A stretch of 39,791 nucleotides of DNA from a virus, in the IMG/VR virus record IMGVR_UViG_3300007516_000048, positions 1-39,791 of that record; one strand, given 5' to 3'. A model generated the notes under the pieces. It did not search any database and was not told the DNA's origin. It saw only the letters and a program-made list of their open reading frames with translations. Positions 813-37,056 of this stretch are shown here, piece by piece; position 1 is the first letter of the stretch, and every line of letters begins with the position of its first letter. Position numbers and translations under genes: made by a program.

Positions 813-895
813 TGAAGCGAAGCGGAATTAGACTTCGCAAGGCGCTCAGTAGGGGGCGTTCTCGCAACAAGCGAACAGCGAATGGAAGCGTGTAA
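812..895 (+). CDS. Arg-rich 27-residue micro-ORF between TerS and TerL
   Basis: This is a 27-codon reading frame starting MKRSGIRLRKALS. It contains ten Lys/Arg and no Asp/Glu. Its ATG overlaps the TerS stop by one base (TGATG) and has a good Shine-Dalgarno, GGGAGG at 798-803 with 8 nt spacing. It ends 14 nt inside the TerL gene, whose own ATG at 882 has no clear ribosome-binding site. The frame may therefore serve as a coupling ORF that delivers ribosomes to TerL, or encode a small basic nucleic-acid-binding peptide. Too short to assign by homology; function unknown. Confidence 0.45.
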   Translation: MKRSGIRLRKALSRGRSRNKRTANGSV

Positions 896-2363
896 CCCAG
901 AGGCTATACTCGCCGCGCAAGCTGCGTTACGGATGGAGCGGAAACTACTCGCAGCCGCTAAGGCTGACCCTGTCCGCTTCTACTCCCCTCACGCTAAGCA
1001 AGACGACTTCCACCGCGCCGGCGGCCACAGTCGGAGAGCGGTGTTTGCTGGTAACCGCTTCGGGAAGAGCCATCTCGGTGCAGCTGAAGACGGAGCGTGG
1101 CTGCGTGGTGAACGGGCGTGGTATCCTCAGTCAGACGCGGCGAGGCGGCTGGGGATACCACAACGCCCGGTGAAGGGGCTAGTGATCTGTGCGGACTGGG
1201 ACAAAGTCGGCGAGATTTGGACAGAAGAAGGCGGCGTTAAGCCGGGCAAGATCTGGAGTATGCTCCCTCGCGGGTTCGTCAAGAAGAAGACACGCTCCTC
1301 GAACGGAGTTATAGACTTCCTACTATGCAAGAACGAGTCGTTGCTCCGCTTTGAGACAGTCAAGTCGTTCCAGAACAACCCACTAGGCACGGAAAGCAGT
1401 GATTGGGACTTCATCCACGTCGACGAGCCATGCCCCCAGAAGATGTTCACTGCTGCTGCCCGCGGCCTCGTAGACCGCAAGGGCTTCGCATGGTTCACCC
1501 TCACGGCGATCAGTGAGCCGTGGATCGTAGACTACTTCATCGACAACGACTTCTGGTACGAGTACGGCTCCATTTACGACAACCCGCATAACACTCTCGA
1601 AGCTATCAAGGAGTTCGAGCTGTTGCTAGACGACGACGAGAAGGAGTGCCGTCTCTACGGTAAGCCGCTTCATATGGCAGGGCTGGTGTACAAGCAGTTC
1701 ACTACAGACTTCCACGTGCTGAAGACGTTACCGCTCGGTTGGACAGCGTACGACCGCCCTCCTCGCGACTACACGATCTACGTCCGTATAGACACACACC
1801 CACAGGTCCCGCACGCGGTGCTCTTCTGCGCTGTCAGCCCGACTGGCCACCGCTTCTACTATGACGAGATATTCGCTCAGCTCTCGATTGTCGCGCTAAG
1901 CGGGGAGATCAAGAAGCGCACGGTAGGCTACCAGATGGGCACCATCAAGGTGGAGCCTGCTGCCTGGGTGCTTGACCCTATCTCTAAGGTGACTAGCGTG
2001 GCTCGTGAGTTTGCCGCGGCCGGCTTGCCGGTGCTACGTAGCAGTAAAGACCTCTCTGGCGGGATTGTTAAGGTGAAGCAGTCGTTAGGAGAGTTGCCGC
2101 CCCGGTTGCACTTCTCCCCGCTGATGAAGCGCACGTTGTGGGAGATCAAACGCTACTGCTGGGACCCGAAAGGAACGAACAAACCGATAGACACCGAAGA
2201 CCACATGATGGAGAATCTCTACCGGATGGAGATTGACAATCCACGGTGGTGTGAGCCTGGCACGGAGACCGAGGAGTGGTGGCCTGACCCGATGCCCTTG
2301 GCATCGTTGTCTACAGCCGACTTTGACGACAGCCTGGACCTTGAGCTAAATCTAACGTTATGA
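882..2363 (+). CDS. terL: Terminase large subunit (packaging ATPase/nuclease)
   Basis: TerL is the motor that translocates DNA into the prohead and cuts it. The 493-residue length is normal for the family. The Walker A loop is VFAGNRFGKSHLGA (about residues 54-67), in the classic terminase form GNRxGKS/T. A Walker B-like strand with the acidic pair follows at WDFIHVDEP (about residues 178-186). The C-terminal half has a candidate RNase H-like nuclease start, YTIYVRIDTHPQ (about residues 302-313), with the expected Asp. The start at 882 lacks a strong ribosome-binding site and overlaps the upstream micro-ORF. The stop overlaps the next gene as ATGA. High confidence on function; the assignment of individual nuclease residues is by eye. 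Confidence 0.93.
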   Translation: MEACNPEAILAAQAALRMERKLLAAAKADPVRFYSPHAKQDDFHRAGGHSRRAVFAGNRFGKSHLGAAEDGAWLRGERAWYPQSDAARRLGIPQRPVKGLVICADWDKVGEIWTEEGGVKPGKIWSMLPRGFVKKKTRSSNGVIDFLLCKNESLLRFETVKSFQNNPLGTESSDWDFIHVDEPCPQKMFTAAARGLVDRKGFAWFTLTAISEPWIVDYFIDNDFWYEYGSIYDNPHNTLEAIKEFELLLDDDEKECRLYGKPLHMAGLVYKQFTTDFHVLKTLPLGWTAYDRPPRDYTIYVRIDTHPQVPHAVLFCAVSPTGHRFYYDEIFAQLSIVALSGEIKKRTVGYQMGTIKVEPAAWVLDPISKVTSVAREFAAAGLPVLRSSKDLSGGIVKVKQSLGELPPRLHFSPLMKRTLWEIKRYCWDPKGTNKPIDTEDHMMENLYRMEIDNPRWCEPGTETEEWWPDPMPLASLSTADFDDSLDLELNLTL

Positions 2364-2611: not shown

Positions 2612-3313
2612 ATGAACTCCAATGTAGAGTACTACCGGCCATTCGGCCAACAAGCAACAGGGACGGTTACGTTTAACGCGGTGCCGGTCACGGATGCAAC
2701 CGTTACGATAGGCGGTGTCGCTTTCATTTTCAACGATGACTTCGCCAGCGCGGCGAACTTCACAGGCAGCAACGCAGCTTTATGCGCCCGCTCGCTATGC
2801 GAGTGCATCAACAGCACGCCGATTAAGTACCTCAAGACGCATAACAACCTGAACGGGTTCAGGACGTTCTTCGCGATGTACTACGGTAACGTGGTGGTCG
2901 TGGTGGCGACTGAGCCAGGCACGGGTGGCAACGTGATTGGTGTGGTGGTTAGCGGAGACACGAACGGCGCGATAGCAGTGAGTGGGGCTGTGCTTGCTGG
3001 TGGAACCAGCTTGGCTGTGCCGGTCGTGATGAGCGCAGGCGCCACAGCGTTCAGCATCGAGACGGGAACATTCACTGCTAGCGGAGTAGCGAAGGTGTTC
3101 AGCGCTACCTCGAAGCTGTACTCGAAGTTGCACATCCTCTCAACAGCCGGTAATGTAGACGCTACGCTAGGCGACTCTGTCGCGCAGCCGCTACCGATCG
3201 TCGCAGGCGTATGGTACACTTTCGACCCACCGCCTCTCGGCGTGGGTGATATGAACGACCTTTATGTTAATGGCACTAACGCCGAGGTATTCTCCTGGCT
3301 TCGCTGGTACTGA
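2612..3313 (+). CDS. Virion structural protein with beta-rich tandem domain
   Basis: A 233-residue, Gly/Ala/Val/Thr-rich beta-strand protein. Near the N-terminus the pattern ATGTVTFNAVPVTDATVTIGG followed by VAFIF is a motif common to phage appendage and capsid-decoration proteins, where the phrase 'A-T-G-x-V-T-F ... G-D-T-V-T-I-x-G-V-x-F-x-F' recurs. The C-terminus (FSATSKLYSKLHILSTAG and PLPIVAGVWYTFDPPPLGVG) resembles a capsid or fibre jelly-roll domain. It has a good ribosome-binding site (AGGAG at about 2599-2603). No signal peptide. Likely a decoration or fibre component; exact role unknown. Confidence 0.75.
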   Translation: MNSNVEYYRPFGQQATGTVTFNAVPVTDATVTIGGVAFIFNDDFASAANFTGSNAALCARSLCECINSTPIKYLKTHNNLNGFRTFFAMYYGNVVVVVATEPGTGGNVIGVVVSGDTNGAIAVSGAVLAGGTSLAVPVVMSAGATAFSIETGTFTASGVAKVFSATSKLYSKLHILSTAGNVDATLGDSVAQPLPIVAGVWYTFDPPPLGVGDMNDLYVNGTNAEVFSWLRWY

Positions 3314-3317
3314 TCTT

Positions 3318-3746
3318 ATGAAGAAGTTACTATGTTTGCTTGGCTTGTGCGCTAGCACAGCCGCTCAGCCGTTCTGGACTCCAACTCCATTCATGTCGGA
3401 CTGGCCGCGACAGCCTGACGCCGCTACGGCGCGGACGAAGTTGGGTGTTGTCGCTGCGCCGATGCTGACAAGGGCCGCGTTAAGCGGGACGAAGACATTG
3501 ACCGTTGGCACGGACAATCCCGTGCAGGTCGCATCCTCGGTCGCGAGCACGCCGATCTTCGACCTGCAAGACACGTCGGCACGGAACGGGGACCTGTTCC
3601 ATGTCGTGAACCAGAGCGCCACGGCATCGCTGGCTGTAAACGCCAACGGCGGCCTGCTGAAGACCGTGCCGGCAGATAGCTGGGCGCGATTCCAATGGGA
3701 TACCGGAACAACCGACTGGGTGCTGATCAGCTACGGGAGTCTATAA
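3318..3746 (+). CDS. Small beta-rich protein with N-terminal signal peptide
   Basis: From the ATG at 3318 the 142-residue product begins MKKLLCLLGLCASTAAQPFW, a convincing Sec-type signal peptide with cleavage near residue 16-17. What follows contains DAATARTKLGVVA, a phrase typical of phage tail-fibre proteins, then a beta-rich C-terminal half (DLQDTSARNGDLFHVVNQSA). A longer frame opens at 3264 but would mask the signal and overlap the previous gene. A signal peptide is not normal on a virion fibre, which assembles in the cytoplasm, so the protein may be exported to the host surface during infection, or the hydrophobic N-terminus may be an anchor. The CTAG-free island starts inside this gene, just after the signal-peptide codons. 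Confidence 0.7.
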   Translation: MKKLLCLLGLCASTAAQPFWTPTPFMSDWPRQPDAATARTKLGVVAAPMLTRAALSGTKTLTVGTDNPVQVASSVASTPIFDLQDTSARNGDLFHVVNQSATASLAVNANGGLLKTVPADSWARFQWDTGTTDWVLISYGSL

Positions 3747-3747
3747 C

Positions 3748-4212
3748 ATGAGCGCAACATCTTACAACATTCGAGGGCTGTCGGTCACGGCACTGCCAGC
3801 ATCGCCGTTGGTTGATACCATCTACCGACTCACCGCCGCGGACAACACGGCGAGAGCGGCTCCGGGCGAGTATGTCGATAATGGGGATGGCTGGGTCTGC
3901 AACAATTACAGGTTGATGTACTATTATGGCAACCTGACCGGCTCCGTGTCCCTCTCGTTGATCCCCGGCGCGGCCTACTTTGGCACGGTCATCGCCGGGG
4001 CCATCACGACGCTCGTGACCACGTTGACGGCGAAAGGGATTGCCGGGTTGCAGTTGATGAATGCATCCCTCTTTGCGGTCGCTCAGCCCTCGATGGCAGG
4101 GCGGACACCGAAGGCGCTGACGGACCTCGCGCCGCTGGCAACGGCTCTGGTCCAGATCAACATCGAGGACAATGGGATGTATCTGTACACCTCGTGCGCG
4201 GAGGCAGTCTGA
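3748..4212 (+). CDS. Hypothetical protein, 154 residues
   Basis: The protein begins MSATSYNIRGLSVTALPASPLVDTIYRL and has a mid-region YVDNGDGWVCNNYRLMYYYGNL. It then has a hydrophobic Ala/Thr/Gly-rich stretch (AAYFGTVIAGAITTLVTTLTA). The N-terminal pattern resembles short modules in phage fibre proteins that describe a value, time or position (LPASPLVDTIYRLTAADN), but no catalytic motif is seen. It sits one base after the preceding stop with a possible ribosome-binding site CGGGAG, and its stop overlaps the LRR-protein start by one base (TGATG). Part of the putative acquired island. Function unknown. Confidence 0.7.
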   Translation: MSATSYNIRGLSVTALPASPLVDTIYRLTAADNTARAAPGEYVDNGDGWVCNNYRLMYYYGNLTGSVSLSLIPGAAYFGTVIAGAITTLVTTLTAKGIAGLQLMNASLFAVAQPSMAGRTPKALTDLAPLATALVQINIEDNGMYLYTSCAEAV

Positions 4213-5144
4213 TGAGCACTCGCAGACAACAGGCGGGGATGATGGGGGGCGCACCGCTGCCTTACGTGGTGCAACCTGCGTCATCGACGGAGATCGACAT
4301 CAACCTCAAGGGGCCTGGCGCTCTGACGATTTACTGGGGTGACGGGCTCAGTAACAGCTACACGCTGAACCTGAGCACGAACACGACCGTCTCTCACACG
4401 TACGCGAGCGGAGCAGAGCGCGATGTGAAATTCGACGGGGCAATCACGTCGTGGACCAGCACGGGCGATACGTTCTACGGTGGGGATGTTGCGAATCTTC
4501 CAAGGGGGATTACGTATCTGAACGTCTGGGGCTACAACACTCTGTCGGGAGCCGTGTCCGGGTTGCCCACTGGGTTGACGTATCTGTACGTCATTGGCTC
4601 GAACACCCTGTCGGGTGACGTGTCCGGGTTGCCCACTGGGTTGACGGTTCTGGTCGTCTATGGCACGAACACTCTGTCAGGTGCCGTTAGTGGATTGCCT
4701 GCTGGGTTGACGTATCTGCTCGTCATTGGCTCCAACACCGTGTCGGGTGATGTTAGCGGACTGCCCACTGGAATAACGTATCTGGTCGTCTGGGGCTCGA
4801 ACACCCTGTCAGGCGAACTATCTGGCATCCCAAGCGTCGCCAATTACGTCTCGCTCGGCAGTGCCAGCAGCACGATGGCGCTCGCGACGGCAGCATTGCC
4901 GACCGGGCTCTGTTATTTCCTCATCAACCAACCACTGCCCCAAGCGTCGTTGGACAACATCCTGGCCGCGTTCTGGGCAAACCGAGACGCAGCCAAGCCG
5001 CGGGCAGAGCGCACCATCGACATCGACTACGCTGGGAGTGGAACTCCATCCGCTGCCGGGCTGGTGGACAAGACCAACTTACAGGCTTACCGGTCGCCGA
5101 ATAGCGATCCAACGAAACCCTTCTGGACGGTCAACACATTGTAA
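4212..5144 (+). CDS. PKD-like / leucine-rich-repeat surface protein
   Basis: A 310-residue protein started at the ATG at 4212, which has a strong ribosome-binding site (GGAGG, 4200-4204) and overlaps the previous stop. Residues about 20-80 look like a PKD/Ig-like beta-sandwich (GALTIYWGDG ... TVSHTYASG). Residues about 95-204 are five tandem 22-residue units of the form LPxGLTYLxVxGxNTLSGxVSG, matching bacterial leucine-rich repeats with Leu/Ile/Val at the inward positions. A degenerate sixth unit (GIPSVANYVSLGS) follows, then a mixed C-terminal region (PQASLDNILAAFWANRD). It has no clear signal peptide. LRR solenoids usually bind proteins or glycans, so an adhesin-like or receptor-binding role is inferred. 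It lies in the CTAG-free island and may be host-derived. Confidence 0.8.
   Translation: MSTRRQQAGMMGGAPLPYVVQPASSTEIDINLKGPGALTIYWGDGLSNSYTLNLSTNTTVSHTYASGAERDVKFDGAITSWTSTGDTFYGGDVANLPRGITYLNVWGYNTLSGAVSGLPTGLTYLYVIGSNTLSGDVSGLPTGLTVLVVYGTNTLSGAVSGLPAGLTYLLVIGSNTVSGDVSGLPTGITYLVVWGSNTLSGELSGIPSVANYVSLGSASSTMALATAALPTGLCYFLINQPLPQASLDNILAAFWANRDAAKPRAERTIDIDYAGSGTPSAAGLVDKTNLQAYRSPNSDPTKPFWTVNTL
4494..4823 (+). repeat. Five tandem 66-bp repeats encoding LRR units
   Basis: Units begin at 4494, 4560, 4626, 4692 and 4758, each 66 bp (22 codons). The junction between units 2 and 3 shows near-identical DNA (TCCGGGTTGCCCACTGGG at both 4557 and 4623), while other units diverge at many codons. The in-frame unit length means copy number can change without breaking the gene. 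It is a coding repeat, not a CRISPR array, because there are no unique spacers. Confidence 0.9.
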
Positions 5145-5146
5145 CT

Positions 5147-5683
5147 ATGATCTGGAACCACAACGAAACCCCGCCCACTCGCGTGACCAGCAGCACGATC
5201 ACGCTGGCCGGCGAGACAGTCGTCATCAACCACAAGGCCACGGACGCGGTGCTGAACGGCATCAAGCTGTACCGCCAAGGCGTGGACGAACCAATACAGA
5301 CGGGCCACCGCATCGTCAGCGCCGACAGGGTGATCAGCCCGGACGGCAAGAGCGTGCTGGTGAACTTGGTCACGGAACTGATGCCCGTGGTTGAGCCGGT
5401 GCCTGCGGAGTTCCGGGATGGAATTGAAACGCCCAGCATCATCTTCCCGGCATCGGTCACTCACGACTACGAGCAGACGATCATAGACGGGGTGGTCACG
5501 GTCATCCAGATCAGCGCCAGCCCGCGCAAGGACACGGGCGAGAGGGACGCGTTGAAGGCGGTGAAGAAGATCGAGTTGGACGCCACGAAGGCCGGGCTGC
5601 CGTCGCTGCTGGCCAAGGTGAACGACAAAGACGTCAGAGCCGTGCTGGAGATCATTCTGAGGCAAATGAACCTAATTACGTAA
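5147..5683 (+). CDS. Hypothetical protein, 178 residues
   Basis: A soluble protein lying two bases after the LRR gene and one base before the PEP-CTERM gene. It is beta-rich in the first two thirds (SSTITLAGETVVINHKATDA; GKSVLVNLVTELMPVVEPV) and helical at the end (DALKAVKKIELDATKAGLPS). No signal peptide, membrane span or catalytic motif is visible. The tail of the sequence looks like a chaperone or connector segment. Its placement between two putative surface proteins suggests a partner or fibre-tip role, which is inference only. Confidence 0.65.
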   Translation: MIWNHNETPPTRVTSSTITLAGETVVINHKATDAVLNGIKLYRQGVDEPIQTGHRIVSADRVISPDGKSVLVNLVTELMPVVEPVPAEFRDGIETPSIIFPASVTHDYEQTIIDGVVTVIQISASPRKDTGERDALKAVKKIELDATKAGLPSLLAKVNDKDVRAVLEIILRQMNLIT

Positions 5684-5684
5684 C

Positions 5685-6236
5685 ATGAAGAAAATACTAC
5701 TCGCAATCACACTGTTCGCGGCATTCGCAATGCAGGCCGCGACTCTCAACATCAACGGCCGACTCCACACGGAGACCGGCACCCTGGCCGTTCCCATCAC
5801 GGTCAGCTACGACGCGGCGCAGGCGGTGCCGTGGCAAGAACCAGGCTGGTCGCTGATCGCTCCAGTGACGCTCACAATGACGATATTCGGCGTCACCTAC
5901 GATCAGACCGATGATGGGGATTATCCGAATTGGCCTGGTCTGGTCCTTTACAAAGGTGCTCCGGATCAATTGGATTTCGTAGTACTTCAGCCTCGTCTGT
6001 CAATCTGGCGACTCGGAGCCGTTGGCCCACTGGTGGAGACACCGGATGGCTGGTCGGTGCAGGTATTTGTTGACGCAAGCGCGAGTGACTTTGGCTACGG
6101 GCTACCCGGCAAACCTGTCCGGTTGAGTATGTTTCAACCTGGCGTGCCGGAACCAGGCGCGTGGGCGATGGTGGTAGGGCTTGGATTGCTTGGGCTGGTG
6201 ATCGGACGGCGAAGGCGGCGGGCTTTCGGAGTGTAG
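5685..6236 (+). CDS. Secreted protein with PEP-CTERM sorting signal
   Basis: A 183-residue protein with both ends of an exosortase substrate. The N-terminus MKKILLAITLFAAFAMQA is a Sec signal peptide. The C-terminus has VPEP at residues 154-157, a hydrophobic span to residue 174, then five consecutive Arg (175-179) and four more residues. That three-part layout is the PEP-CTERM signal that host exosortase (EpsH/XrtA families) recognises. The body is beta-rich (TETGTLAVPITVSYDAAQAV; LTMTIFGVTYDQTDDGD), as in many PEP-CTERM surface proteins. I see no exosortase here, so processing would depend on the host. The gene lies at the end of the CTAG-free island, supporting capture from a bacterial genome. 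A function in coating or masking the infected cell is inference. Confidence 0.85.
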   Translation: MKKILLAITLFAAFAMQAATLNINGRLHTETGTLAVPITVSYDAAQAVPWQEPGWSLIAPVTLTMTIFGVTYDQTDDGDYPNWPGLVLYKGAPDQLDFVVLQPRLSIWRLGAVGPLVETPDGWSVQVFVDASASDFGYGLPGKPVRLSMFQPGVPEPGAWAMVVGLGLLGLVIGRRRRRAFGV

Positions 6237-6985: not shown

Positions 6986-7146
6986 CTGTAGTCTTCGCCA
7001 CGCTGGCGATCAAGCACGGTGTGCCGTATGCGGTACGTGCGATTGACCGTTTAATGGAGGCGGACAACCCTACGAAAGACGAATGGGCTGCGTTGCGGAA
7101 GCGAGTAGCTACACCTTTCGATGAATTTGTGAAAGATAGAGTATGA
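6973..7146 (+). CDS. Hypothetical small protein, 57 residues
   Basis: A short gene beginning MEELAVVFATLAIKHGVPYA and ending ATPFDEFVKDRV. A strong GGAGG (6961-6965) lies seven bases before the ATG. It overlaps the lipoprotein gene by 13 bases and the glycosyltransferase gene by four bases (ATGA), so it fits the coupled chain exactly. The sequence looks soluble and helical, with no Cys or signal. The segment LAIKHGVPYAVRAIDRL resembles short helical proteins near holins in other phages, but I cannot name a family. Confidence 0.7.
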   Translation: MEELAVVFATLAIKHGVPYAVRAIDRLMEADNPTKDEWAALRKRVATPFDEFVKDRV

Positions 7147-8159
7147 GGTATAATGTTTTTGGTGCTTACGAACAGAGCACGTCTTTCGGCTTGACGAGTA
7201 AGTTCGTCTGCGAGGCGTTGTTGAAAGCTGGGCATGACGTGGTGGCGGTGGTGCAGGATAATGGCGGAGTAGCTGACAGGCTACTGCACCCAGCCTGTCC
7301 AAAGTGGTTGAAGACGAAGGCTGGACAGCCGCAGCCGAAAGCGAAGAACGTGTGCGTGTTCCCGATTGGGTGGCCGTACTATAAAACGCACGCGAAGGGC
7401 TCGACAGTCGTGACAGTGTGGGAGACGGACAAACTGCATCCGAGAGATGTCAAGTGGCTGAATGAAGCGAAGAAAGTCATCACGTTCACCGCATGGGGCA
7501 AGCGTGTAATGGAGCAGAGCGGAGTAAGTGTACCGATAGCTATCATGCCGTTGGGTGTAGATAAGCGGTACGTCCTCTCGAAAGAGATGCCAGTCGGGAA
7601 GACGTTCCTCACGGCGGGCCGGTGCTGGAGTGGAAATAGGCGGAAGGGTGTTGGCAACGTTATAGCAGCGTTTCTCGGGCACGCGGAGCGGCATGCTGAT
7701 ACACGACTAGTCATTAAAGCAGCCGAATGTGACCCGCTGGAGTTCTCTCACCCCCGAGTGCAGATCATCAAGCAACAGGTGCCGGTGGAGGAGATGATGC
7801 GCTTGTACGCACATAGCTTCTGCTACGTCTCTGGTGCGTTGAGTGAGGGCTGGGGATGGCACCAGCACGAGGCTATGATGTGCGGTAGGCCGGTGATTGG
7901 AACGACGTATGGCGGGATGGGAGAATTCTTCAAAGGTAATGAGCATGGGTATGCTGTTCGATATGGTATGGAGAAGGCTGACGATGAGTACCACGCTAGT
8001 GGCCGCTGGACCGTCCCTTCGCTAGACGACATGGTCGCTGCAATGAACAAGGCAGCAGCTGACCCGTACGACGCCATGATGCGTGGACTGAAAGCCCACA
8101 TGGCGGTGCAGCACATGACTGCTGATCTGATGTACCGTAATTTCGCCAAACTGATATGA
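7143..8159 (+). CDS. Glycosyltransferase, GT4/GT-B type
   Basis: A 338-residue GT-B enzyme expected to move a sugar from a nucleotide-sugar to an acceptor with retention of configuration. The N-terminal domain starts with a Rossmann-like strand and a Gly-rich turn (RYNVFGAYEQSTSFG). The C-terminal donor domain carries the EX7E signature, Glu235 and Glu243, within SEGWGWHQHEAMMCGRPVIGT, which is diagnostic of family GT4. A nucleotide-contact segment AGRCWSGNRRKGV precedes it. Slightly short for GT4 but both domains look whole. Coupled on both sides by ATGA overlaps. The acceptor could be host O-antigen or a virion protein; DNA is less likely because no modified-base pathway is seen nearby. Confidence 0.88.
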   Translation: MRYNVFGAYEQSTSFGLTSKFVCEALLKAGHDVVAVVQDNGGVADRLLHPACPKWLKTKAGQPQPKAKNVCVFPIGWPYYKTHAKGSTVVTVWETDKLHPRDVKWLNEAKKVITFTAWGKRVMEQSGVSVPIAIMPLGVDKRYVLSKEMPVGKTFLTAGRCWSGNRRKGVGNVIAAFLGHAERHADTRLVIKAAECDPLEFSHPRVQIIKQQVPVEEMMRLYAHSFCYVSGALSEGWGWHQHEAMMCGRPVIGTTYGGMGEFFKGNEHGYAVRYGMEKADDEYHASGRWTVPSLDDMVAAMNKAAADPYDAMMRGLKAHMAVQHMTADLMYRNFAKLI

Positions 8160-8362
8160 CTACCGAGGGCCTCCTTTCGTTACACAACGCCCGATTCCGC
8201 CTCTTCGGTGCAGCCACCTTGCAAGGGCAAGGTGACGTCGCGTTCATCGACAGGCTGGTCAGTGACACGCAACCAGAGTTTGTCGCGGAGGGTTTTGAGG
8301 AGTTTATGTGGCGGGAGGCAGAGTTGTTGCACAGTGACTGGCGCGCGTGGAGGAAGCTATGA
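8156..8362 (+). CDS. Hypothetical protein, 68 residues
   Basis: A small acidic protein in the glycan cassette, with ATGA overlaps to the GT4 gene before it and the GT2 gene after it. The N-terminal phrase NARFRLFGAATLQGQGD and the C-terminal helix EFVAEGFEEFMWREAELLHS are visible, with several Trp near the end (WREAELLHSDWRAWRKL). No catalytic motif or membrane span. It could be an accessory subunit for one of the flanking transferases. Function unknown. Confidence 0.65.
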   Translation: MTTEGLLSLHNARFRLFGAATLQGQGDVAFIDRLVSDTQPEFVAEGFEEFMWREAELLHSDWRAWRKL

Positions 8363-8994
8363 AAAGTGTGTCTAGCTATATGCTGGTGCTGAACGAGGCG
8401 ACGTTCGTCCGACATGCGATACACAGCGTGTTGCGGTATGTGGATGAGTTGCTAGTCATCGACGGTGGGAGTAGTGATTGCACACGCGATATCGTCACGG
8501 AGATAGCTAGTATCGATAGACGAGTCCGGCTAGAGGTGTGGCCGCAGAGTGGTGTGCCGTACACTGCAGCTTGGCACGAGCCGACTGTGCGCAACACCGC
8601 GATGACTAAGTTAGCCCATGACTGGGTGCTGACGCTTGACGCAGATGAGGTGTTGGAGGCAGACGAGAACTTGTTTAGGTCGCTGGACGAGCCTGCTGTG
8701 CTGACACGGCTGAATCTTGTTAGTTACAGCCGATATATCCACCGTATGGGTGTACAGTTGTGGTACCCAGACTCGCAGCTTCGCTTCTACAACCGGCGTA
8801 ACGCTGTCTACCCTCCACAGGCGTTACATAGCATTGCTACGCAAGCGAATGGACAGCCAATGCCGTTCGTCACCGTAGACGCTACGCTGTGGCACTACAA
8901 CGGGATTGTTAAGCCACGGAGGCAGTGGCTAGCGGACAATCCGACAGCGTTCACCAGCCTTCCCTGTCAGCGGAGAGCCCCCGTCACGTTATGA
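8359..8994 (+). CDS. Glycosyltransferase, GT2/GT-A type
   Basis: The ATG at 8359 has a strong ribosome-binding site (GGAGGAAG) and gives a 211-residue GT-A protein. Family GT2 hallmarks are present in order: the N-terminal strand and LNE turn (YMLVLNEATF, residues 7-16), the nucleotide-binding DGGSSDCT (35-42), and the DXD metal site LDADE (93-97). The C-terminal portion (RFYNRRNAVYPPQALHSIAT; LWHYNGI) matches the small GT2 enzymes that act on LPS core or glycans. It overlaps both neighbours by four bases. Likely works with the upstream GT4 enzyme to assemble a short glycan; the substrate is unknown. Confidence 0.88.
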   Translation: MKSVSSYMLVLNEATFVRHAIHSVLRYVDELLVIDGGSSDCTRDIVTEIASIDRRVRLEVWPQSGVPYTAAWHEPTVRNTAMTKLAHDWVLTLDADEVLEADENLFRSLDEPAVLTRLNLVSYSRYIHRMGVQLWYPDSQLRFYNRRNAVYPPQALHSIATQANGQPMPFVTVDATLWHYNGIVKPRRQWLADNPTAFTSLPCQRRAPVTL

Positions 8995-9476
8995 TTACAG
9001 CTTCTCCCTTACCTTGGTTATCGTTCGAAGCGGTTAGCGTGCTATTGTCTACTAGGTGCGAAGGCGATACACTGTTTGAGTACGGCAGCGGCTACGGCAC
9101 TGACTTCTGGCGGATGTTCTATACGGTAACTAGTGTGGATCATAGCCCAGATTTCGGCAAGTACGCAGATGCGTTGTATCGCGACGAAGTGGCGTATGTC
9201 AACGCGCTGAATATGCAGTATGATGTAGTCATCTGTGACGGGCACGATCCATGGCGGCCACAGTGTGCTCTGCGCGCTGCTCAGTTCGCGAAGAAGATAG
9301 TCATTATTGACGACACAGAACGAGAGTCGTACGTTCCGTGGATCAACGCCGCAATGAGTGATGAGTGGAGTCGGCACGATTTTCACGGTATGAAACGTTT
9401 CGACTCTCGGCAAGCTGGCAACCTGATACCAACACAGACAACGTTGTTTGCACGGAAGGGAGTGGTGCAGTTGTGA
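8991..9476 (+). CDS. SAM-dependent methyltransferase-like protein
   Basis: A 161-residue protein from the ATG at 8991 (ATGA overlap with the GT2 gene). A class I methyltransferase motif I is visible as LFEYGSGYGTDF (residues 28-39), followed by a strand ending in an acidic residue (VTSVDHSPDF), then a motif IV-like strand YDVVICDGHDPW and a strand KKIVIIDDTE. The fold is short but complete through five strands. It has no DNA-methyltransferase DPPY motif, so a sugar, lipid or protein substrate is more likely. It belongs to the coupled glycan cassette, and the natural partner is a glycan made by the neighbouring transferases. Confidence 0.75.
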   Translation: MITASPLPWLSFEAVSVLLSTRCEGDTLFEYGSGYGTDFWRMFYTVTSVDHSPDFGKYADALYRDEVAYVNALNMQYDVVICDGHDPWRPQCALRAAQFAKKIVIIDDTERESYVPWINAAMSDEWSRHDFHGMKRFDSRQAGNLIPTQTTLFARKGVVQL

Positions 9477-9508
9477 AGACTTTCGTGATAGCACCTATCA
9501 TGTTATGA
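9473..9508 (+). CDS. 11-codon linker ORF bridging two methyltransferase genes
   Basis: An 11-codon frame, GTG start, reading MKTFVIAPIML. It overlaps the upstream stop as GTGA and the downstream ATG at 9505 as ATGA, so ribosomes could pass through it between the flanking genes. A GGGAG about ten bases upstream may start it, whereas the 9505 ATG has no Shine-Dalgarno. Its first 18 bases are the same as the start of the gene at 10038, so it is probably the stranded 5' end of that gene left by an insertion, now acting as a coupling leader. Confidence 0.4.
   Translation: MKTFVIAPIML
9474..9491 (+). repeat. 18-bp direct repeat, left copy
   Basis: TGAAGACTTTCGTGATAG occurs here and again at 10039-10056. 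The copies are 565 bp apart and bracket the methyltransferase gene at 9505-10041. Here it spans the stop codon of the preceding gene and the start of the linker ORF. Confidence 0.9.
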
Positions 9509-10041
9509 CGTTTACGCAAAACTTCTTCGCCGGTATGCGGCCTGATATGGAGGCTGTAGTACCGAAGACCGCAAAGACTGTGCTAGAGGTTGGCGTGTTC
9601 GAGGGTCGGTCTACGCTGTTCTTCTGTGAGTGGTGTGCAGAGCTAGAGTTGTTGGTGGCTGTGGACCACTTTGAGGGTGGTGACGGACTTGACGGTAGTG
9701 GGTTGTTTGAACGGTTTACGGAGAACACGCTGGAGTGCTCGCATAAGATTCAGACACTAGTCGGCTCGTCATGGCAAGAGCTTCCGAAACTGCAAGCGAA
9801 TATGTTCGATGTGGTGTGTGTGGATGGTTCGCACGCCACCGCAACCGTGATGCACGATGCTGTGCAGGCGTACCGCGTGTGTAGGATTGGCGGTGTGCTA
9901 GTGTTCGACGACTATACGTGGGGGCATGAGGCCATGAATATACCGAAGATAGCCATTGATGCGTTTGAACAGACGTTCGTTATGTTGGTCGAACATATCC
10001 CAACCACTCCTAGAGTGAGAGCTTTTCGTAAAGTAGCATGA
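9505..10041 (+). CDS. Class I methyltransferase (Methyltransf_24-like)
   Basis: A 178-residue protein from the ATG at 9505. Motif I is VLEVGVFEGRST (residues 26-37), the acidic end of strand 2 is VAVDHFEGGDG (51-61), and the later strands read FDVVCVDGSH (101-110) and GGVLVFDDYTWG (129-140). The D-G-S-H and F-D-D-Y pair with the E-G-R-S turn are characteristic of the Methyltransf_24/cephalosporin-hydroxylase-like group often found in glycan clusters, where they methylate sugars. A metal-binding role of Asp/His is likely. The gene is bracketed by an 18-bp direct repeat, so it may be a later insertion into the cassette. Confidence 0.85.
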   Translation: MTFTQNFFAGMRPDMEAVVPKTAKTVLEVGVFEGRSTLFFCEWCAELELLVAVDHFEGGDGLDGSGLFERFTENTLECSHKIQTLVGSSWQELPKLQANMFDVVCVDGSHATATVMHDAVQAYRVCRIGGVLVFDDYTWGHEAMNIPKIAIDAFEQTFVMLVEHIPTTPRVRAFRKVA

Positions 10042-10625
10042 AGACTTTCGTGATAGACGGAGTAGAGCTACCGTACTACTTTCGAACTCGCATTAACAGC
10101 GAGCGGACAGTGGAAGTTGCGTTGGCGAATTGGTTCGTCGACAAGTGTCCAGAGTTCGTGGAGGTGGGTGCTGTGTTGCCGGCGTATGGAGTAGTAGGCC
10201 ACATGTGCTACGACTTATGCGAGAAGCGAGCCGGCGTGTTGAACGTGGATGCAGAGACGGTAGACTACACCGGCCTAAACGTGCTCAACATTTCTACGAT
10301 AGAGCATATGGGTAAAGCAGAGTACGGTAACACGGTGCTAGACGCGGACAAGCCGATTAGAGTGTTCTGCAAAACGTTGAGTGAGGCGAAGAACTACCTG
10401 GTTACATTTCCTGCCGGGCATGACAAGCAGCTAGATCGCTTTGTTGACAACAGACACAAGGCAAGAGTGCTGTGCTGGAGCGAAGGCAATCTGTGGTGTG
10501 AGACAGACGAACTGCTGACTAGCTTTGGCTACGGTCAGCGTGCCCCGTTCGCAGACGCAATCGCGGTTGTTAGCAACCTCTTTAATGATTTGCACACCTC
10601 ACAAAGCTATGCTAATGTGGCATAG
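10038..10625 (+). CDS. Methyltransferase-like protein
   Basis: A 195-residue protein, coupled to the previous gene by ATGA. The phrase FVEVGAVLPAYG (residues 40-51) corresponds to a methyltransferase motif I, though the Gly-rich loop is reduced. LNVDAETVDYTGLNVLNIST (68-87) ends strands 2 and 4, and STIEHMGKAEYG (86-97) matches the S-T-I/L-E-H-V/I-G signature found in class I SAM-dependent methyltransferases. The C-terminal half has fewer recognisable motifs. The weakened motif I could mean relaxed or lost SAM binding. It is the last gene before the portal, and the 18-bp repeat overlaps its start. Confidence 0.7.
   Translation: MKTFVIDGVELPYYFRTRINSERTVEVALANWFVDKCPEFVEVGAVLPAYGVVGHMCYDLCEKRAGVLNVDAETVDYTGLNVLNISTIEHMGKAEYGNTVLDADKPIRVFCKTLSEAKNYLVTFPAGHDKQLDRFVDNRHKARVLCWSEGNLWCETDELLTSFGYGQRAPFADAIAVVSNLFNDLHTSQSYANVA
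10039..10056 (+). repeat. 18-bp direct repeat, right copy
   Basis: Second copy of TGAAGACTTTCGTGATAG, spanning the preceding stop codon and the first codons (MKTFVI) of this methyltransferase-like gene. Deletion between the copies would join the gene ending at 9476 directly to this one with an intact four-base overlap. Confidence 0.9.
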
Positions 10626-10649: not shown

Positions 10650-12578
10650 ATGGCGATTGAAGTATTCATAGCGGACTTAGAAAAGCCACGGCCGTCCGGT
10701 TGGCATGACGACTTGCTAGACTGGTGTAAGGAGAAAGTCAGCGAGAGTCGTGCTGTGATGTCGGAACGGTACGAGGAGTGGGACGCTTCCCACGCCGCTT
10801 TTCGTGCACGAGTAGACAAGACTCGTGACGACCTCGCGGCAGAGAAACGGAAAGAGCCTACCCGACAGGCCATCCCGCTGACGTTTGCGCAAGTGGAGAC
10901 CTTCGTCTCGTTCTTGATGACACTGTATCTTCAGCGGGAGAGGTTGTTCGAGCTGGTGCCGACCGGCGAGGAAGACGCCGATGCGGCTGCGCTCGCGGAG
11001 GCGACCATCGCGAGGGATCTGCGTGACAACGTGTTCGAGATGAAGCTGTACAAGTTTCTGCTGAACGTCGCGAAGTATGGCATCGGTGTGATGAAGGTCA
11101 CGTGGGAGGAGAAGTTTGAGGAAGTCGAGCGGGTGGAAGAGGCCGACCCGGTGAGTATTGCTGGACAGGAGATCGGGACCGCGGAGCCAGTGACCGTTGT
11201 TGAGCGCATCAAGGTCCGTGCTGGAAACAAGATCGAGACGATCTCGCCGTATAGCTTCTTCCCTGACCCCAACTTCCCACTGAGTCAGATGCAGGAGGGT
11301 GAGTTTGTGGCGAGCGAGATCGTTATGACGCGGCAGTCGCTTATCGACATGGAGTTGCGGGATGAAGTGGTGGGTGTGGAGCATATTGAGCGGCTGCCGA
11401 AGACGGTTGATTATGGGGACCGGAGAGTGCTACGGCTACAGAAGAATGAGGACATTCAGCGTACGCCGGACAAGGAAGGCACTGGCCCGGTGATCATCAC
11501 TGAGGTGCAAGCTACGCTAATCCCCAGCAAGTTTCTAATCGAGAAGGAGCCGCTTGGCACGCAAGACTACCCGGTCAAGTACAAGATTTGGTATGCGAAC
11601 GACAACCGCATCATCAGTATCGAGCCGTTGGCTCAGCCGCATGGACAGTATAGCTATGTGGTGGGCGAGTTCACGCCAGATGATGAGGAGATGGTGTCCA
11701 GCTCGCTGAGCGATAACATCAAGCCGTTGCAAGACACCGCTTCATGGCTGATCTCTAGTCATGTGGCCAACGTTCGCAAGGTGATCAACAACCAGTTGAT
11801 TGTGGACGGGAGTGCTATCGAGGTTAGCGATTTGCTGGAGCGGAAGAACGTAGTGCGGCTGCGGAATAGCGCACAAGGCACGGACATCAGTCGGGCGGTA
11901 AAGCAGTTGGAAGTGCGTGATGTCACTGGCGCGCATATGGGCGATGCGAAACAGATGTACGATCTAGCGCAGATCGTTTCTGGTATTAGCGACAACGCTA
12001 TGGGGCAGTTTAGTCCTGGCCGGCGAAGTGCGCTAGAGGCAAGGAATGTCAATGCCGGTGCGGCTATGCGCCTGAAGATGCACGGGATGCTGCTCTTCCG
12101 GGGTGCGCTAGAGCCTATGGCTCGTATGATGTTGAAGAACCTCAAGCAGTGGCTTGATGTGGAGACGTTCGTCGAGGTGCGGGGAGAGTTGAGTGATCCT
12201 AGTGAGTATGCTCGGTTCAAGACAGTCACGGGCCGGTCGCTCATGGGCAGTTATGACTTTGAGGTTTTCGATGGCACGCTGCCGTCGGAGCGTGGTGCGC
12301 AAGCACAGGCGCTGCAAGAGTTCTTGCAGTTCCTTGGAGCGAACCCGGAGAGTATTGCTTTCCTGGGTTACGATCCTCGCGAGATCATGAAAGAATGGTT
12401 AATGCTACGCGGCATACGGAACCCGGAGCGGTTCAAACTTGACGCGTTGCGGCAACAAGAACTACAAGCCCAAATGCAACAGTATGGCATTGGACCCGGA
12501 AGTGCTGGCGGAAATCGAGGAGTTGGGAATGGACCCGCAGGAGGCGCGTCAAGAGGCACAGGCCGTCCTACGGTCTAG
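10650..12578 (+). CDS. Portal protein (head-tail connector)
   Basis: A 642-residue protein that should form the dodecameric DNA gate at the capsid vertex. Size, the early helical region (WCKEKVSESRAVMSERYEEW), the segment IPLTFAQVETFVSFLMTLYL and the later stem-like region (LQDTASWLISSHVANVRKVI) agree with large podovirus portals. The pattern NVFEMKLYKFLLNVAKYGIG then VMKVTWEEK is a recurrent portal motif. The C-terminal tail is Gln/Gly-rich and low-complexity (QAQMQQYGIGPGSAGGNRGV). It precedes scaffold and capsid genes, which fixes the assignment. The 3' end overlaps the following gene by 95 bases in another frame. Confidence 0.9.
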   Translation: MAIEVFIADLEKPRPSGWHDDLLDWCKEKVSESRAVMSERYEEWDASHAAFRARVDKTRDDLAAEKRKEPTRQAIPLTFAQVETFVSFLMTLYLQRERLFELVPTGEEDADAAALAEATIARDLRDNVFEMKLYKFLLNVAKYGIGVMKVTWEEKFEEVERVEEADPVSIAGQEIGTAEPVTVVERIKVRAGNKIETISPYSFFPDPNFPLSQMQEGEFVASEIVMTRQSLIDMELRDEVVGVEHIERLPKTVDYGDRRVLRLQKNEDIQRTPDKEGTGPVIITEVQATLIPSKFLIEKEPLGTQDYPVKYKIWYANDNRIISIEPLAQPHGQYSYVVGEFTPDDEEMVSSSLSDNIKPLQDTASWLISSHVANVRKVINNQLIVDGSAIEVSDLLERKNVVRLRNSAQGTDISRAVKQLEVRDVTGAHMGDAKQMYDLAQIVSGISDNAMGQFSPGRRSALEARNVNAGAAMRLKMHGMLLFRGALEPMARMMLKNLKQWLDVETFVEVRGELSDPSEYARFKTVTGRSLMGSYDFEVFDGTLPSERGAQAQALQEFLQFLGANPESIAFLGYDPREIMKEWLMLRGIRNPERFKLDALRQQELQAQMQQYGIGPGSAGGNRGVGNGPAGGASRGTGRPTV

Positions 12579-22296: not shown

Positions 22297-25200
22297 ATGC
22301 CGGAACCGAGCGAATTGACATATGGGCAGGTGGCTGATCTGCATCGCACGCTGGGGAAGAGCAACCCACAGCTAGCGGAACTGCCGTTGCAAGACTTTGC
22401 CGCACTCGCTAACCGGGTTAGTGGAAGTGGGGAGTATTCAGCAGGGTTGAACGATAACTGGGTTAAGCGGACGAGTCATACGATAGATAGGATGTTCGCC
22501 CCAGTAGGCAAGCCAATAGGTGCGTTTGCGGAGTCCGTGACACGAGAGTTGGGCTATGAGAAGTACGCTGATCTGGCGAACGAGCTAGGGACTGGCCTAC
22601 CGCGTGGCGCACTAGAGACTGCTGCTATGTTCACTCCTGCCGGGTGGGTAGGAAAGGGATTGACTGCGGCCGGCTTAGCCTCGAACTATGCCAATACGTA
22701 CACCGCTACGGATAGCAAACTTGCCGGTGCGGCAAGTGCTGCAAGCCTTGGCCTGTTGCCGCCGATGATTAGGGCTGGTGAGAAACTTGCAATGGCACCG
22801 TTGAAGCGAGGCTTCTGGGAGACTGTTTCTGGAATGCCGGGCGGTGCACCGGCTGTGAAGAGTGTACTACTACCTGTGGCAGAACGCTCCGCAGAGTTCG
22901 CTGGCCGGAATGTCGGTGCACTGTTGAACCAGGAGTTGGCCATCCAGAGCACGACGTTGGCAGCTACTGGTCGTCCAGCACCCTTCGATGATAGACATTA
23001 CGCTGAGTTGGTGGCAGGGCAGTTGCCGTTCACGTTGCTGGAAGCGGCGGGAGTTGTGCGGCCACGGTTCCGTGGCGAGGCTGGGTCGAACGCCAGAGCG
23101 AGAGCGAACATAGAACTTCACGGTGTAGTGAGGGAAGCGACTAGAGCGGCAGAGACTGCGAACGACGCAATGCAGATGGATGTCGCGAGTACGTCTAAAC
23201 GGGTAGAGAGTGTACTGAATGAGATCGCTGACCCGAAACAGCGTGCTACTGCTGCGACTGACGCGAACAAGATGTACCAGCGCGTGATGTCTGAGGTTAT
23301 GATCGCCGGGACGGAAGGTCGTCCGTTGAACATGGAGCGGATCAACGCAGGCGCGACGGATAGCACTCGACGGATGGTGTCCGTCATTATGGACGACATG
23401 CTAGGTAGGCCGGAGGGGGAAAGGTTTCTGACGAGGGCAGAGGATGGTACTATTTCAGCGGTGGCGGGGTTCAATGTTGAGGAGGTTCTAGCTCGACGTG
23501 GTGGTAGGGAGAGCGCAAAGGTGCGCATCACACCGGAGGGTGGGCGAGAGTTACCACCTCTTGACTCGCTATGGCTTGGCGCAGGTGCGACAGCACGGAA
23601 AGGGTCTATGCTGGAGACGTTGATGGGTGTGGACGTACAGTCGCTAGAGCACCCAGCGCGGGTGGTCGAGGTGCTGCTTGGACCGGAGGCGGTGCAGAAA
23701 CAGCAACGTGCGTTCCAGGAGTACTTCCGCGCGGACGTCGCGGAGCCGAAGCGAGTGGCGGTGTACGGTGAGGGTGCTGCACCGAAGCCTACGCCGGCGA
23801 TGACGCTAGACAGCGTGACCGACTATGGTACAGCGAAACAGTACATCTTAGAGCGGTTCTCTGCTCTAGCGAAAGGACGAAAGACTGATGAACTGGTTGA
23901 AGCGCGTCATATGCTGTATGGAGATGGTGTGTATGCGAGAGAGTCACTCGGTAAGGTCACCACGAAATCGTTCGCTGGCGCGGCTAAAGACTCCGCTCAA
24001 GTCTTCATCGGTGGAAAACCTACCGAGATGGTGCAGTACCAAGCACCGAGAACAGATGGGTCCTACTATACCGCTTTCCGTGAAGCTACACCGGGAGAAC
24101 TTAAAGCGTTTGAAAAGCCAACGCTAACGAAAGCGAAGGCGGCTGAGGCGTCGCAGAAGGCGCAAGCGAGTTTTGTGCAGAAGGAGAATGCGCTTCGGCA
24201 GACCTTTGCCGAGGAGCGTCAAGCGGCAATGGATAAAGTGGGGGTGGGGAGTCTTGAGGAGTTGGCACAGAAGGCCGCTGACTCACACTCGCAAGTGGAG
24301 TATGATCTTACTGGATTCTCCCGCCAGATCTCACCGGCGGAGCGGAAAGCTGGTGCAGTGGAGGGGCTGGTGTCACTGCTGCCGGAGGGAGAGCAGCGGA
24401 CACGGTTGGAGCGGATGCTAACCCGTGGCGAGGGGGATCCGAACAGCGTCCGGCTGACGACCGCGGATGAGCTTGCGCTGTTGCAGGTAGAGGCAGAGCA
24501 GTTGAGGGTGCAGGTGACACAGCACGCACCAGAGGATGTGCGGAAGTTGCTGCACTTGGCGGATGGAGAGTATGCACAGCGATTCACCGAGCTAGCGACC
24601 ACGATTGAACGGGACGGTGGGTATAGTGGTGGAGTGGCTGCGGAGAGGTATGCCGCGCTATTAGCGAGACGGGTGAGGGATTTGCAGAGTCTACTCGGAC
24701 TAACCGAAGGCGCGTATGCTAAGCACCTGGAAGCACGGTGGGAGGTGGAGGAAGGGACGGCTGTGCGGGAGGCGCAGGAGCGGCGGAGTAAGCTGTCGAA
24801 GCTAGTTGGGGAGGACCGGAAGGCGGAGACGGAGGGTGTGACGGCCGACACGGAGGCTGTACTGTTTGAGAAGATGCGAGTGCTGTCGGAGGACCCTGAG
24901 TTAACTGGTGCGTTTGAGGGGCTGACCGATATGCTGTACCGGTTCGAGGTGACCCGGAGTGGACGTACCGGTCCCTTTGCTGACGTTGTGAGTCGGTATG
25001 GGTTGTACAAGATGTTCGACCATGCTGTTGACCTCATGGAGGGGTATAAGGATGTCAAGGCGGGGCGGGCGACGGATAACTCTAAGCGGTGGCTGGATGC
25101 GGCGAAGGGAGTTGGAGAGAGGAAAGAGCTGTACAGCAGCCCTCGTGACCCGCGGGAGGTGTTGCTGAGCGGGTTACGGAAGAAGGAGAGTAGGTTCCGG

Positions 25201-31420: not shown

Positions 31421-31575
31421 TTTTTCCCAGCATCTAGCTTAACAAGGAAGTCTTTTGTAGTTTGATGTAATAGACTAAGGAGGATGAATTGTTCTGTGTC
31501 GTTTGCCGTACATGAATCCGAGTCGTCAAATTCAAACTCGTGATCGCAATGAGGGCAGTGTGTGTGGTGGATCAT
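31402..31575 (-). CDS. 57-residue CxxC protein
   Basis: A short gene reading MIHHTHCPHCDHEFEFDDSD with a probable zinc-binding CPHC knuckle (Cys7, Cys10) in a His-rich N-terminus, a single later Cys at position 22, and a basic C-terminus (AGKKWKDGD). The ATG overlaps the polymerase stop as ATGA, so it belongs to the operon. Only two close Cys are present, so a metal site may need His ligands. Possibly an adapter to the polymerase or the DUF3987 protein; function unknown. Confidence 0.7.
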   Translation of the reverse strand: MIHHTHCPHCDHEFEFDDSDSCTANDTEQFILLSLLHQTTKDFLVKLDAGKKWKDGD

Positions 31576-35356: not shown

Positions 35357-35556
35357 GATAATCTTCTCTTGTCTTCACTGAGAAGGAAGTAAACACGGGT
35401 AACCGGGTACGCGCCTCTACTCACTGCGTGTCTGCGTTTCATAGCTGTTTCGTGAATAGCAAGCGCTTTCGCGTCTGCTTCTGCAAGACTGTCAAACAGT
35501 CCGTGTTGTATGTGTATACTGTTATAACTTCTGAGGACTAGATACTGACTGTTCAT
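35353..35556 (-). CDS. Hypothetical protein, 67 residues
   Basis: A small protein from the ATG at 35556, coupled to the methyltransferase gene by ATGA. The sequence (MNSQYLVLRSYNSIHIQHGL then FDSLAEADAKALAIHETAMK) suggests a small alpha/beta fold with a basic end (SEDKRRLS). A longer frame from 35634 would overlap the methyltransferase gene and has an unlikely Arg/His-rich extension. No known family recognised. Confidence 0.65.
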   Translation of the reverse strand: MNSQYLVLRSYNSIHIQHGLFDSLAEADAKALAIHETAMKRRHAVSRGAYPVTRVYFLLSEDKRRLS

Positions 35557-36869: not shown

Positions 36870-37056
36870 GTTGCCGGAGGATTGCTGTGTGCTTTTTAAC
36901 TTTAGCGATGAATAGGAGTGTTTCGTCTGCAAGCTGTTCTCGACAAGCGTCGAGATCGGCGTCGTTATCGTCGAAGGTAGCGGTAAGTTCTATACGTATG
37001 TGCTGGAAAGGCGCCACCTCGACGTTGGTGCGGACAGTGGCGGTGGTGATTCTCAT
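36850..37056 (-). CDS. Hypothetical small protein, 68 residues
   Basis: From the ATG at 37056 the product reads MRITTATVRTNVEVAPFQHI and later FDDNDADLDACREQLADETL, a beta-then-helix layout. The start codon sits directly after the U-tract of the terminator at 37057-37085, with no Shine-Dalgarno between. A longer frame from 37074 would begin inside that hairpin and is less likely. It overlaps the methyltransferase gene by 20 bases. Function unknown. Confidence 0.65.
   Translation of the reverse strand: MRITTATVRTNVEVAPFQHIRIELTATFDDNDADLDACREQLADETLLFIAKVKKHTAILRQHDNEPF

What the first reader, a model, noticed from the sequence alone, without database searches (positions are those of the whole stretch)
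4494..4823. Leucine-rich-repeat phage protein with in-frame 66-bp tandem repeats
Five 22-residue LRR units (LPxGLTYLxVxGxNTLSG) sit behind a PKD-like domain. LRR solenoids are common in bacterial surface proteins but unusual in phage virion regions. Units 2 and 3 share near-identical DNA, so copy number could shift by recombination and tune a binding surface.
Basis: partly seen in the sequence, partly recalled or inferred. Interest (0 to 1): 0.6.

Follow-up and report, generated by a model that had tools for sequence, protein, structure and literature searches.

The report
Phage leucine-rich-repeat adhesin
A phage gene encodes a small protein with a solenoid of five leucine-rich repeats between two capping domains, very probably a sticky or receptor-binding part of the virus particle; the same design turns up in many other phages, so it is a new example of a known kind rather than an oddity.

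Summary
The repeats are real: five in-frame 22-residue units (window 4497-4826) in a 310-residue protein that starts at ATG 4212, not GTG 4194. "Near-identical DNA" is overstated: units 2 and 3 share 51 of 66 bases; the longest exact repeat is 28 bases. AlphaFold2 gives a PKD-like sandwich, an LRR solenoid and an alpha/beta C-cap (pLDDT 79, pTM 0.80); a relative gives pLDDT 91. The best structural neighbours are LRR proteins. The design is not unusual in phages: 55 stretches of IMG/VR carry the repeat, and cultured cyanophage S-SKS1 has a related PKD-plus-LRR gene in its head gene cluster. In one relative the LRR ends a virion structural protein beside the tape-measure gene; in others it sits between terminase and portal, as here. 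Copy-number tuning is not supported: 35 of 35 relative pairs at 48% identity or more have no gap above 5 residues. Variation instead concentrates on positions expected on the concave face. Best reading: a virion-displayed adhesin. Virion location and ligand remain inference. New member of a known kind.

The parts
4212..5144 (+). gene of the PKD-LRR protein, 310 aa, ATG start overlapping the upstream stop codon (TGATG)
4200..4204 (+). GGAGG, likely ribosome-binding site of the LRR gene
   Evidence: sequence
4290..4487 (+). PKD-like N-terminal beta-sandwich (residues 27-92, WGDG...HTY motif)
   Evidence: AF2 strands E27-33 to E89-92; Pfam PKD_4 on relative L057 at E 2.9e-4, below its cut-off
4497..4562 (+). 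LRR unit 1, LPRGITYLNVWGYNTLSGAVSG
   Evidence: pattern match
4563..4628 (+). LRR unit 2, LPTGLTYLYVIGSNTLSGDVSG
   Evidence: pattern match
4629..4694 (+). LRR unit 3, LPTGLTVLVVYGTNTLSGAVSG
   Evidence: pattern match
4695..4760 (+). LRR unit 4, LPAGLTYLLVIGSNTVSGDVSG
   Evidence: pattern match
4761..4826 (+). LRR unit 5, LPTGITYLVVWGSNTLSGELSG
   Evidence: pattern match
4827..4892 (+). degenerate sixth unit (IPSVANYVSLGSASSTMALATA)
   Evidence: modelled strand 212-217
4914..5141 (+). C-terminal alpha/beta cap (residues 235-310: strand 235-238, helix 244-256, strand 267-271, helix 281-292, strand 305-309)
   Evidence: homologous to the L003/L059 protein up to P0001 residue 291; cap profile alone weak, E 0.27
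2612..3313 (+). co-oriented upstream gene, 233 aa, no family match
3318..3746 (+). upstream gene, 142 aa, signal-like N-terminus then fibre-like sequence (by eye)
   Evidence: no family match
3748..4212 (+). upstream gene, 154 aa, fibre-like by eye, stop overlaps the LRR start
   Evidence: no family match
5147..5683 (+). downstream gene, 178 aa, no family match
882..2363 (+). terminase large subunit (context)
   Evidence: phrog_2 E 2e-10
10650..12578 (+). portal protein (context)
   Evidence: Pfam SU10_portal E 5.4e-26

Best explanation
The gene encodes a virion-displayed adhesin (receptor-binding or surface-attachment protein). A PKD-like domain caps the N-terminal end, about six LRR turns form a curved parallel-beta solenoid, and an alpha/beta domain closes the C-terminal end. 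The concave strand face, with variable and often aromatic residues at unit positions 9, 11 and 13, is the likely binding surface. Specificity would change by substitution at those positions while repeat number stays nearly fixed. Shown: repeats, predicted fold, shared architecture in other phages, one relative fused to a virion structural protein, terminase-portal neighbourhood. Inferred: presence in the virion of this phage, position on it, ligand, and which face binds.
For: Fold: pLDDT 79.2, pTM 0.80 and 91.1, 0.85 for relative L021, with strands every 22 residues. Foldseek top PDB hit is the CroV FNIP LRR protein 7zal, E 6.7e-4; VIA Z 15.8 with 4mn8, rmsd 2.9 over 233 residues, and Z 15.3 with SspH1 4nkh, rmsd 3.7 over 225. 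Homology: the protein matches 6 of 6 chosen records, best E 6e-46 at 41% identity. Virion link: in L060 the LRR is the C-terminus of a 1013-aa protein matching phrog_15220 'virion structural protein' at E 3e-56, next to a tape-measure gene at E 5e-74. Context: of ten neighbours scanned one by one, 3 of 4 upstream ones are terminases (L015, L031, L029; not L019) and 4 of 6 downstream ones are portals (L015, L024, L029, L042; L060 virion structural, L046 unknown); this window has the order terminase, LRR, portal. S-SKS1 carries a PKD-plus-LRR gene, A3 profile E 6.7e-6, near prohead protease and the gene annotated capsid assembly protein. Variable face: of ten unit columns left free by the search pattern and the regex, the five most variable are 9, 7, 11, 13 and 6, the outward positions of an LRR strand (recalled rule).
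Against: No mass spectrometry or structure. The window protein itself matches no Pfam model and only a weak PHROG of unknown function. L062, which I read by eye as a tail fibre with a C-terminal LRR, matches no PHROG family. Two neighbours of the window gene carry exported-protein features (a PEP-CTERM signal, a signal-like N-terminus), which fits a secreted role for the cluster equally well. At least one cellular genome encodes the module in a non-phage-looking protein (L058). The concave-face argument uses general LRR geometry, not model coordinates.
Confidence: 0.65

Rival explanations
1. The gene belongs to a cassette of accessory (moron-like) proteins that act on or in the infected cell, for example surface exclusion or altered host adhesion, and is not part of the virion.
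For: Genes next to it look exported: 5685-6236 has a PEP-CTERM sorting motif above Pfam's cut-off and 3318-3746 starts with a signal-like stretch. L057, close in sequence, has a signal-like N-terminus on the LRR protein itself. L058 is a non-phage-looking surface protein with the module.
Against: The window LRR protein has no signal-like N-terminus by eye. A relative is fused to a virion structural protein. Neighbours in several relatives are packaging or tail genes.
Confidence: 0.22
2. Recombination between near-identical units changes repeat number within a population and tunes the binding surface.
For: A 28-bp exact repeat spans the unit 1/2 and 2/3 borders. Among 45 pairs of relatives at 33-48% identity with exactly one gap of 12 or more residues, 20 have a gap of 20-26 residues, about one unit.
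Against: 35 of 35 pairs at 48% identity or more have no gap above 5 residues, and 196 of 196 BLAST-aligned pairs at 45% or more have no gap of 15 or more. Units in the window are only 43-55 of 66 bases identical.
Confidence: 0.06
3. The protein is a head or neck decoration for sticking to surfaces or particles rather than a host-receptor binder.
For: In S-SKS1 the related gene lies between prohead protease and the capsid assembly gene, in the head gene cluster. PKD domains occur in adherent gut phages and, as that paper says, in T4 Hoc (PMC13370021, passages).
Against: In L060 the module sits on a protein beside the tape-measure gene, a tail position.
Confidence: 0.3
4. The repeats form a beta-helix rather than an LRR solenoid.
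For: One tail-spike is listed at rank 3 by Foldseek, probability 0.07.
Against: Both models show one strand plus a short helical turn per 22 residues, and the 50 VIA entries shown for each model are dominated by LRR proteins.
Confidence: 0.03

Closest known systems
FNIP / FGxxFN leucine-rich repeats (Pfam PF05725; Crov539, Crov588 of Cafeteria roenbergensis virus)
   Same: 22-residue unit, LP near the unit border, asparagine shifted within the conserved segment; best Foldseek PDB hit of the window model; relative L057 passes the Pfam FNIP cut-off, 31.6 versus 21 bits
   Different: the window protein has no FN motif (NT instead) and matches no Pfam model; it has PKD and alpha/beta caps; phage, not giant virus
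Bacterial LP-type LRRs of YopM and SspH1/IpaH
   Same: LPxxLxxLxVxxN pattern; top profile hits in the PDB (YopM E 2.8e-4, SspH1 E 0.008); VIA Z 15.3 with SspH1
   Different: those are secreted effectors (recalled) with other flanking domains; nothing here suggests an effector enzyme domain
PKD-plus-LRR protein of Synechococcus phage S-SKS1 (SWZG_00142)
   Same: PKD-like N-terminus, LRR middle, similar C-terminal stretch by eye; A3 profile E 6.7e-6; top BFVD hit is an S-SKS1 PKD protein, E 1.2e-8
   Different: its repeats resemble the DUF285/BspA type (DUF285 E 0.0016, below cut-off) rather than the NTxSG type
LRR insertion in the tail module of the vibriophage P. lipares (PMC10945359, passages)
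   Same: phage LRR protein among tail genes, described as the most diverse protein of that phage
   Different: assigned there with 10% HHpred probability only; no sequence compared here

Membership tests
Leucine-rich repeat proteins | tandem 20-30 residue units with an LxxLxLxxN-like segment | tested here: met
   five 22-residue units LxxLxVxGxNTL; the asparagine sits one place later than in the 11-residue form (definition in PMC9525666 part 1)
Leucine-rich repeat proteins | curved alpha/beta solenoid, one parallel strand per unit | tested here: met
   predicted models only; VIA Z 15.8, rmsd 2.9, 233 aligned
Leucine-rich repeat proteins | match of the window protein to a Pfam LRR model | tested here: not met
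   0 families at E up to 1; LRR_4 matches 4 of 8 members of A3 at E up to 0.1, and the three shown one by one are below its cut-off
FNIP repeats (PF05725) | 22-residue unit | tested here: met
   FNIP unit length from PMC9525666
FNIP repeats (PF05725) | FN motif and Pfam match in the window protein | tested here: not met
   NT in place of FN; no Pfam match
PKD domain | Ig-like sandwich with WGDG...H-Y motif | tested here: inconclusive
   motif and modelled sandwich present; no Pfam PKD match in the window; PKD_4 in L057 E 2.9e-4, 21.3 bits versus cut-off 27
Phage virion adhesins / receptor-binding proteins | present in the virion | not testable with these tools
   needs virion mass spectrometry
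Phage virion adhesins / receptor-binding proteins | homologous domain on a recognised virion protein | tested here: met
   L060 6839-9880, phrog_15220 virion structural protein, E 3e-56; one relative, not the window protein itself

The most novel reading that the evidence does not exclude
The 22-residue LPxxLxxLxIxGxNTISGDIS repeat with PKD and alpha/beta caps is a distinct, phage-enriched LRR family. It would serve as a phage counterpart of a variable lymphocyte receptor: a fixed-length scaffold inserted among packaging and tail genes whose concave face diversifies by substitution to change host or surface specificity.
Probability: 0.25. Interest if true: 0.55.

Novelty: new member of a known kind. 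Interest (0 to 1): 0.3.

Why it matters
LRR solenoids are among the most adaptable binding scaffolds known, and their use by phages is little described in the papers I could search. A recurrent PKD-LRR-cap module in many phages gives a concrete candidate receptor-binding family, with a cultured test case (S-SKS1) and a defined set of variable positions to test. For this single gene the result is ordinary: one more member, with no sign of repeat-number switching.

Tried and rejected
The search for related loci with the window LRR protein and with the portal protein found no relatives; single proteins reach close relatives only. tblastn of the LRR protein against 50,697 phage records: no match at E 1e-3. 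Two relatives against the same collection gave one weak place, Ruminococcus phage phiRM10, E 0.05, and no match; low-complexity filtering may hide such repeats. So the link to S-SKS1 rests on the fold search and the profile, not on tblastn.

A profile of 29 C-terminal caps from relatives, built without the window, places the window cap in register but at E 0.27, and does not report S-SKS1. Homology of the window's cap to most relatives is therefore not shown; the link runs through the L003/L059 protein.

A first gap analysis used a wrong start point for four proteins and produced large artefact gaps in 16 of 32 pairs at 45% or more; it was replaced with checked starts. One search used BLAST spans only, which may stop at large gaps.

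BLAST and phmmer of neighbouring window genes against all fetched loci: nothing. Single-strand DNA folding of the array: z -0.69, no structure signal. Phylum search around the genome of L058: 1 of 35 genomes matched, the centre itself. The strict pattern in genome contigs found 2 stretches, one of them (L057) on a 3.4-kb contig of an archaeal MAG whose other genes look fibre-like, probably a misbinned phage. The viral and genome collections differ in size and I did not normalise the counts.

Literature: six searches on LRR or PKD and phage, plus on FNIP, gave no paper describing this module; the library lacks most subscription journals, and Matsushima 2021 on LRRs of double-stranded DNA viruses was seen only as a reference in PMC10945359. 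What I saw of papers: PMC9525666 part 1 of 6; passages of PMC12750041, PMC10945359, PMC11476376 and PMC13370021; of all others only search listings.

Full report
What is there. The window is a whole virus record of 39,791 bases, possibly a fragment of a genome. A tandem array with period 66 lies at 4512-4810. In frame it encodes five 22-residue units, 4497-4826, and a degenerate pattern for the unit matches five times in the window and never in 100 shuffles. The gene most likely starts at ATG 4212, whose start overlaps the previous stop (TGATG) behind a GGAGG, giving 310 residues. Units are 43-55 of 66 bases identical to each other; units 2 and 3 share 51 of 66, and the longest exact repeat is 28 bases. 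Many differences are synonymous, so the duplications are old.

Fold. With an alignment of eight sequences, AlphaFold2 gives pLDDT 79.2 and pTM 0.80: a beta-sandwich at 27-92, strands starting at 102, 124, 146, 168, 190 and 212, and an alpha/beta domain at the end. A relative from another virus record, L021, gives pLDDT 91.1 and pTM 0.85 with the same three parts. Foldseek's best PDB hit for the window model is a FNIP LRR protein of Cafeteria roenbergensis virus at E 6.7e-4, the only one of 829 matches at E 0.001 or better, with low TM-scores (0.29 and 0.30). VIA gives Z 15.8 with rmsd 2.9 over 233 residues for a plant LRR ectodomain and Z 15.3 with rmsd 3.7 over 225 for SspH1. By sequence, the profile hits YopM (E 2.8e-4) and SspH1 (E 0.008) first among 177,635 PDB sequences. 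The window protein itself has no Pfam match. Relative L057 passes the FNIP cut-off, and three relatives match LRR_4 below its cut-off.

Relatives. A strict unit pattern found 7 stretches in viral contigs and a broader one 55, which include those 7. All 55 give an open reading frame with the repeat, and many show a WGD PKD-like motif before it and a similar C-terminus. The window protein matches 6 of 6 chosen records, best E 6e-46. In 84,980 bacterial and archaeal genomes the strict pattern found 2 stretches: one on a small phage-looking contig, one in what looks like a bacterial surface protein. Around the genome of the latter, 1 of 35 genomes of its phylum matched, namely itself. BFVD lists PKD-containing phage proteins as the best viral matches of the model, S-SKS1 first at E 1.2e-8, and the profile finds a PKD-plus-LRR protein in S-SKS1 at E 6.7e-6, next best 0.036.

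Where the genes sit. In L060 the LRR forms the C-terminus of a protein matching a virion structural family at E 3e-56, beside a tape-measure gene at E 5e-74. Ten neighbours were scanned one by one: of four upstream ones, three are terminases (L015, L031, L029) and one (L019) has no match; of six downstream ones, four are portals (L015, L024, L029, L042), one is a virion structural protein (L060) and one is of unknown function (L046). These ten were picked from 128 neighbours after group scans of 44 and 55 of them showed terminase and portal families, so they are not a random sample. The window has the order terminase (882-2363), LRR, portal (10650-12578), with about 5.5 kb of other genes between LRR and portal. 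S-SKS1 carries its gene between prohead protease and capsid assembly protein. Negative: 5 of 9 proteins have no PHROG match, among them the L062 protein, which I read by eye as a tail fibre with a C-terminal LRR, and the L059 protein.

Repeat number. Among 24 proteins cut from the PKD motif to the end, 35 of 276 pairs are at least 48% identical and none has a gap above 5 residues. The 35 pairs come from four groups of relatives, so they are not 35 independent tests. Between 33 and 48% identity, 45 of 212 pairs have exactly one gap of 12 or more residues, and in 20 of these it is 20-26 residues, about one unit. Repeat number changes, but slowly. No close relative of the window phage was found, so its own population is untested.

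Variable positions. In 106 units from 33 loci (two of them nearly identical), the ten columns left free by the search pattern and the regex rank 9, 7, 11, 13 and 6 as the most variable (entropies 3.83 to 3.01). These are the outward positions of an LRR strand by the recalled rule; I did not check them on model coordinates. In the window, columns 9, 11 and 13 vary among units, while 6 and 7 hardly do.

How it probably works. The best reading is a virion-displayed adhesin with a concave binding face. The fold is well supported by prediction, the virion link rests on relatives, and the ligand is unknown. The main rival is a non-virion accessory role, favoured by exported-looking neighbours. Precedent: an LRR protein within the tail module of a vibriophage (PMC10945359, passages) and PKD domains in adherent gut phages (PMC13370021, passages).

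Verdict. It is a new member of a known kind.

Noticed in passing
window 5685-6236 +: Phage gene with an N-terminal signal-like stretch and a C-terminal PEP-CTERM motif (PF07589, E 3.4e-4, above cut-off), which suggests a host with exosortase. One literature search for PEP-CTERM, phage and exosortase listed 10 of 12 papers, by title on bacteria or metagenomes.
   Followed up: partly
window 31572-34178 -: One 868-aa reading frame matches uracil-DNA glycosylase superfamily (residues 10-159, E 1e-20) and DNA polymerase family A (476-862, E 2.8e-13), an apparent fusion.
   Followed up: no
window 7143-10625 +: Two glycosyltransferases and a methyltransferase plus two unassigned genes lie between the LRR cluster and the portal gene; by eye, glycosyltransferase-like genes also flank the LRR gene in L005 and L062.
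   Followed up: no
window 35553-36932 -: Weak ParB N-terminal and DNA methylase matches in one frame, both below cut-off.
   Followed up: no
window 3318-3746 +: Fibre-like sequence behind a signal-like N-terminus; L057 has a similar-looking gene just upstream of its LRR gene.
   Followed up: partly
window 22297-30240 +: 2647-aa reading frame, perhaps a very large virion protein; not analysed.
   Followed up: no
L002 9939-9941: An in-frame TAG splits the LRR reading frame; TAG also ends two other long frames of that locus, so simple stop recoding is not indicated.
   Followed up: partly
L026 215-2877; L009 3023-8197: Two LRR reading frames in tandem in L026, and a second 1724-aa frame with LRR-like motifs in L009.
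   Followed up: no
neighbours in alignment A6; L033 and L038: Fib_succ_major domains, known from diversity-generating systems (recalled), match 2 of 55 downstream neighbours; by eye the same domain is fused to the LRR in L033 and L038.
   Followed up: no
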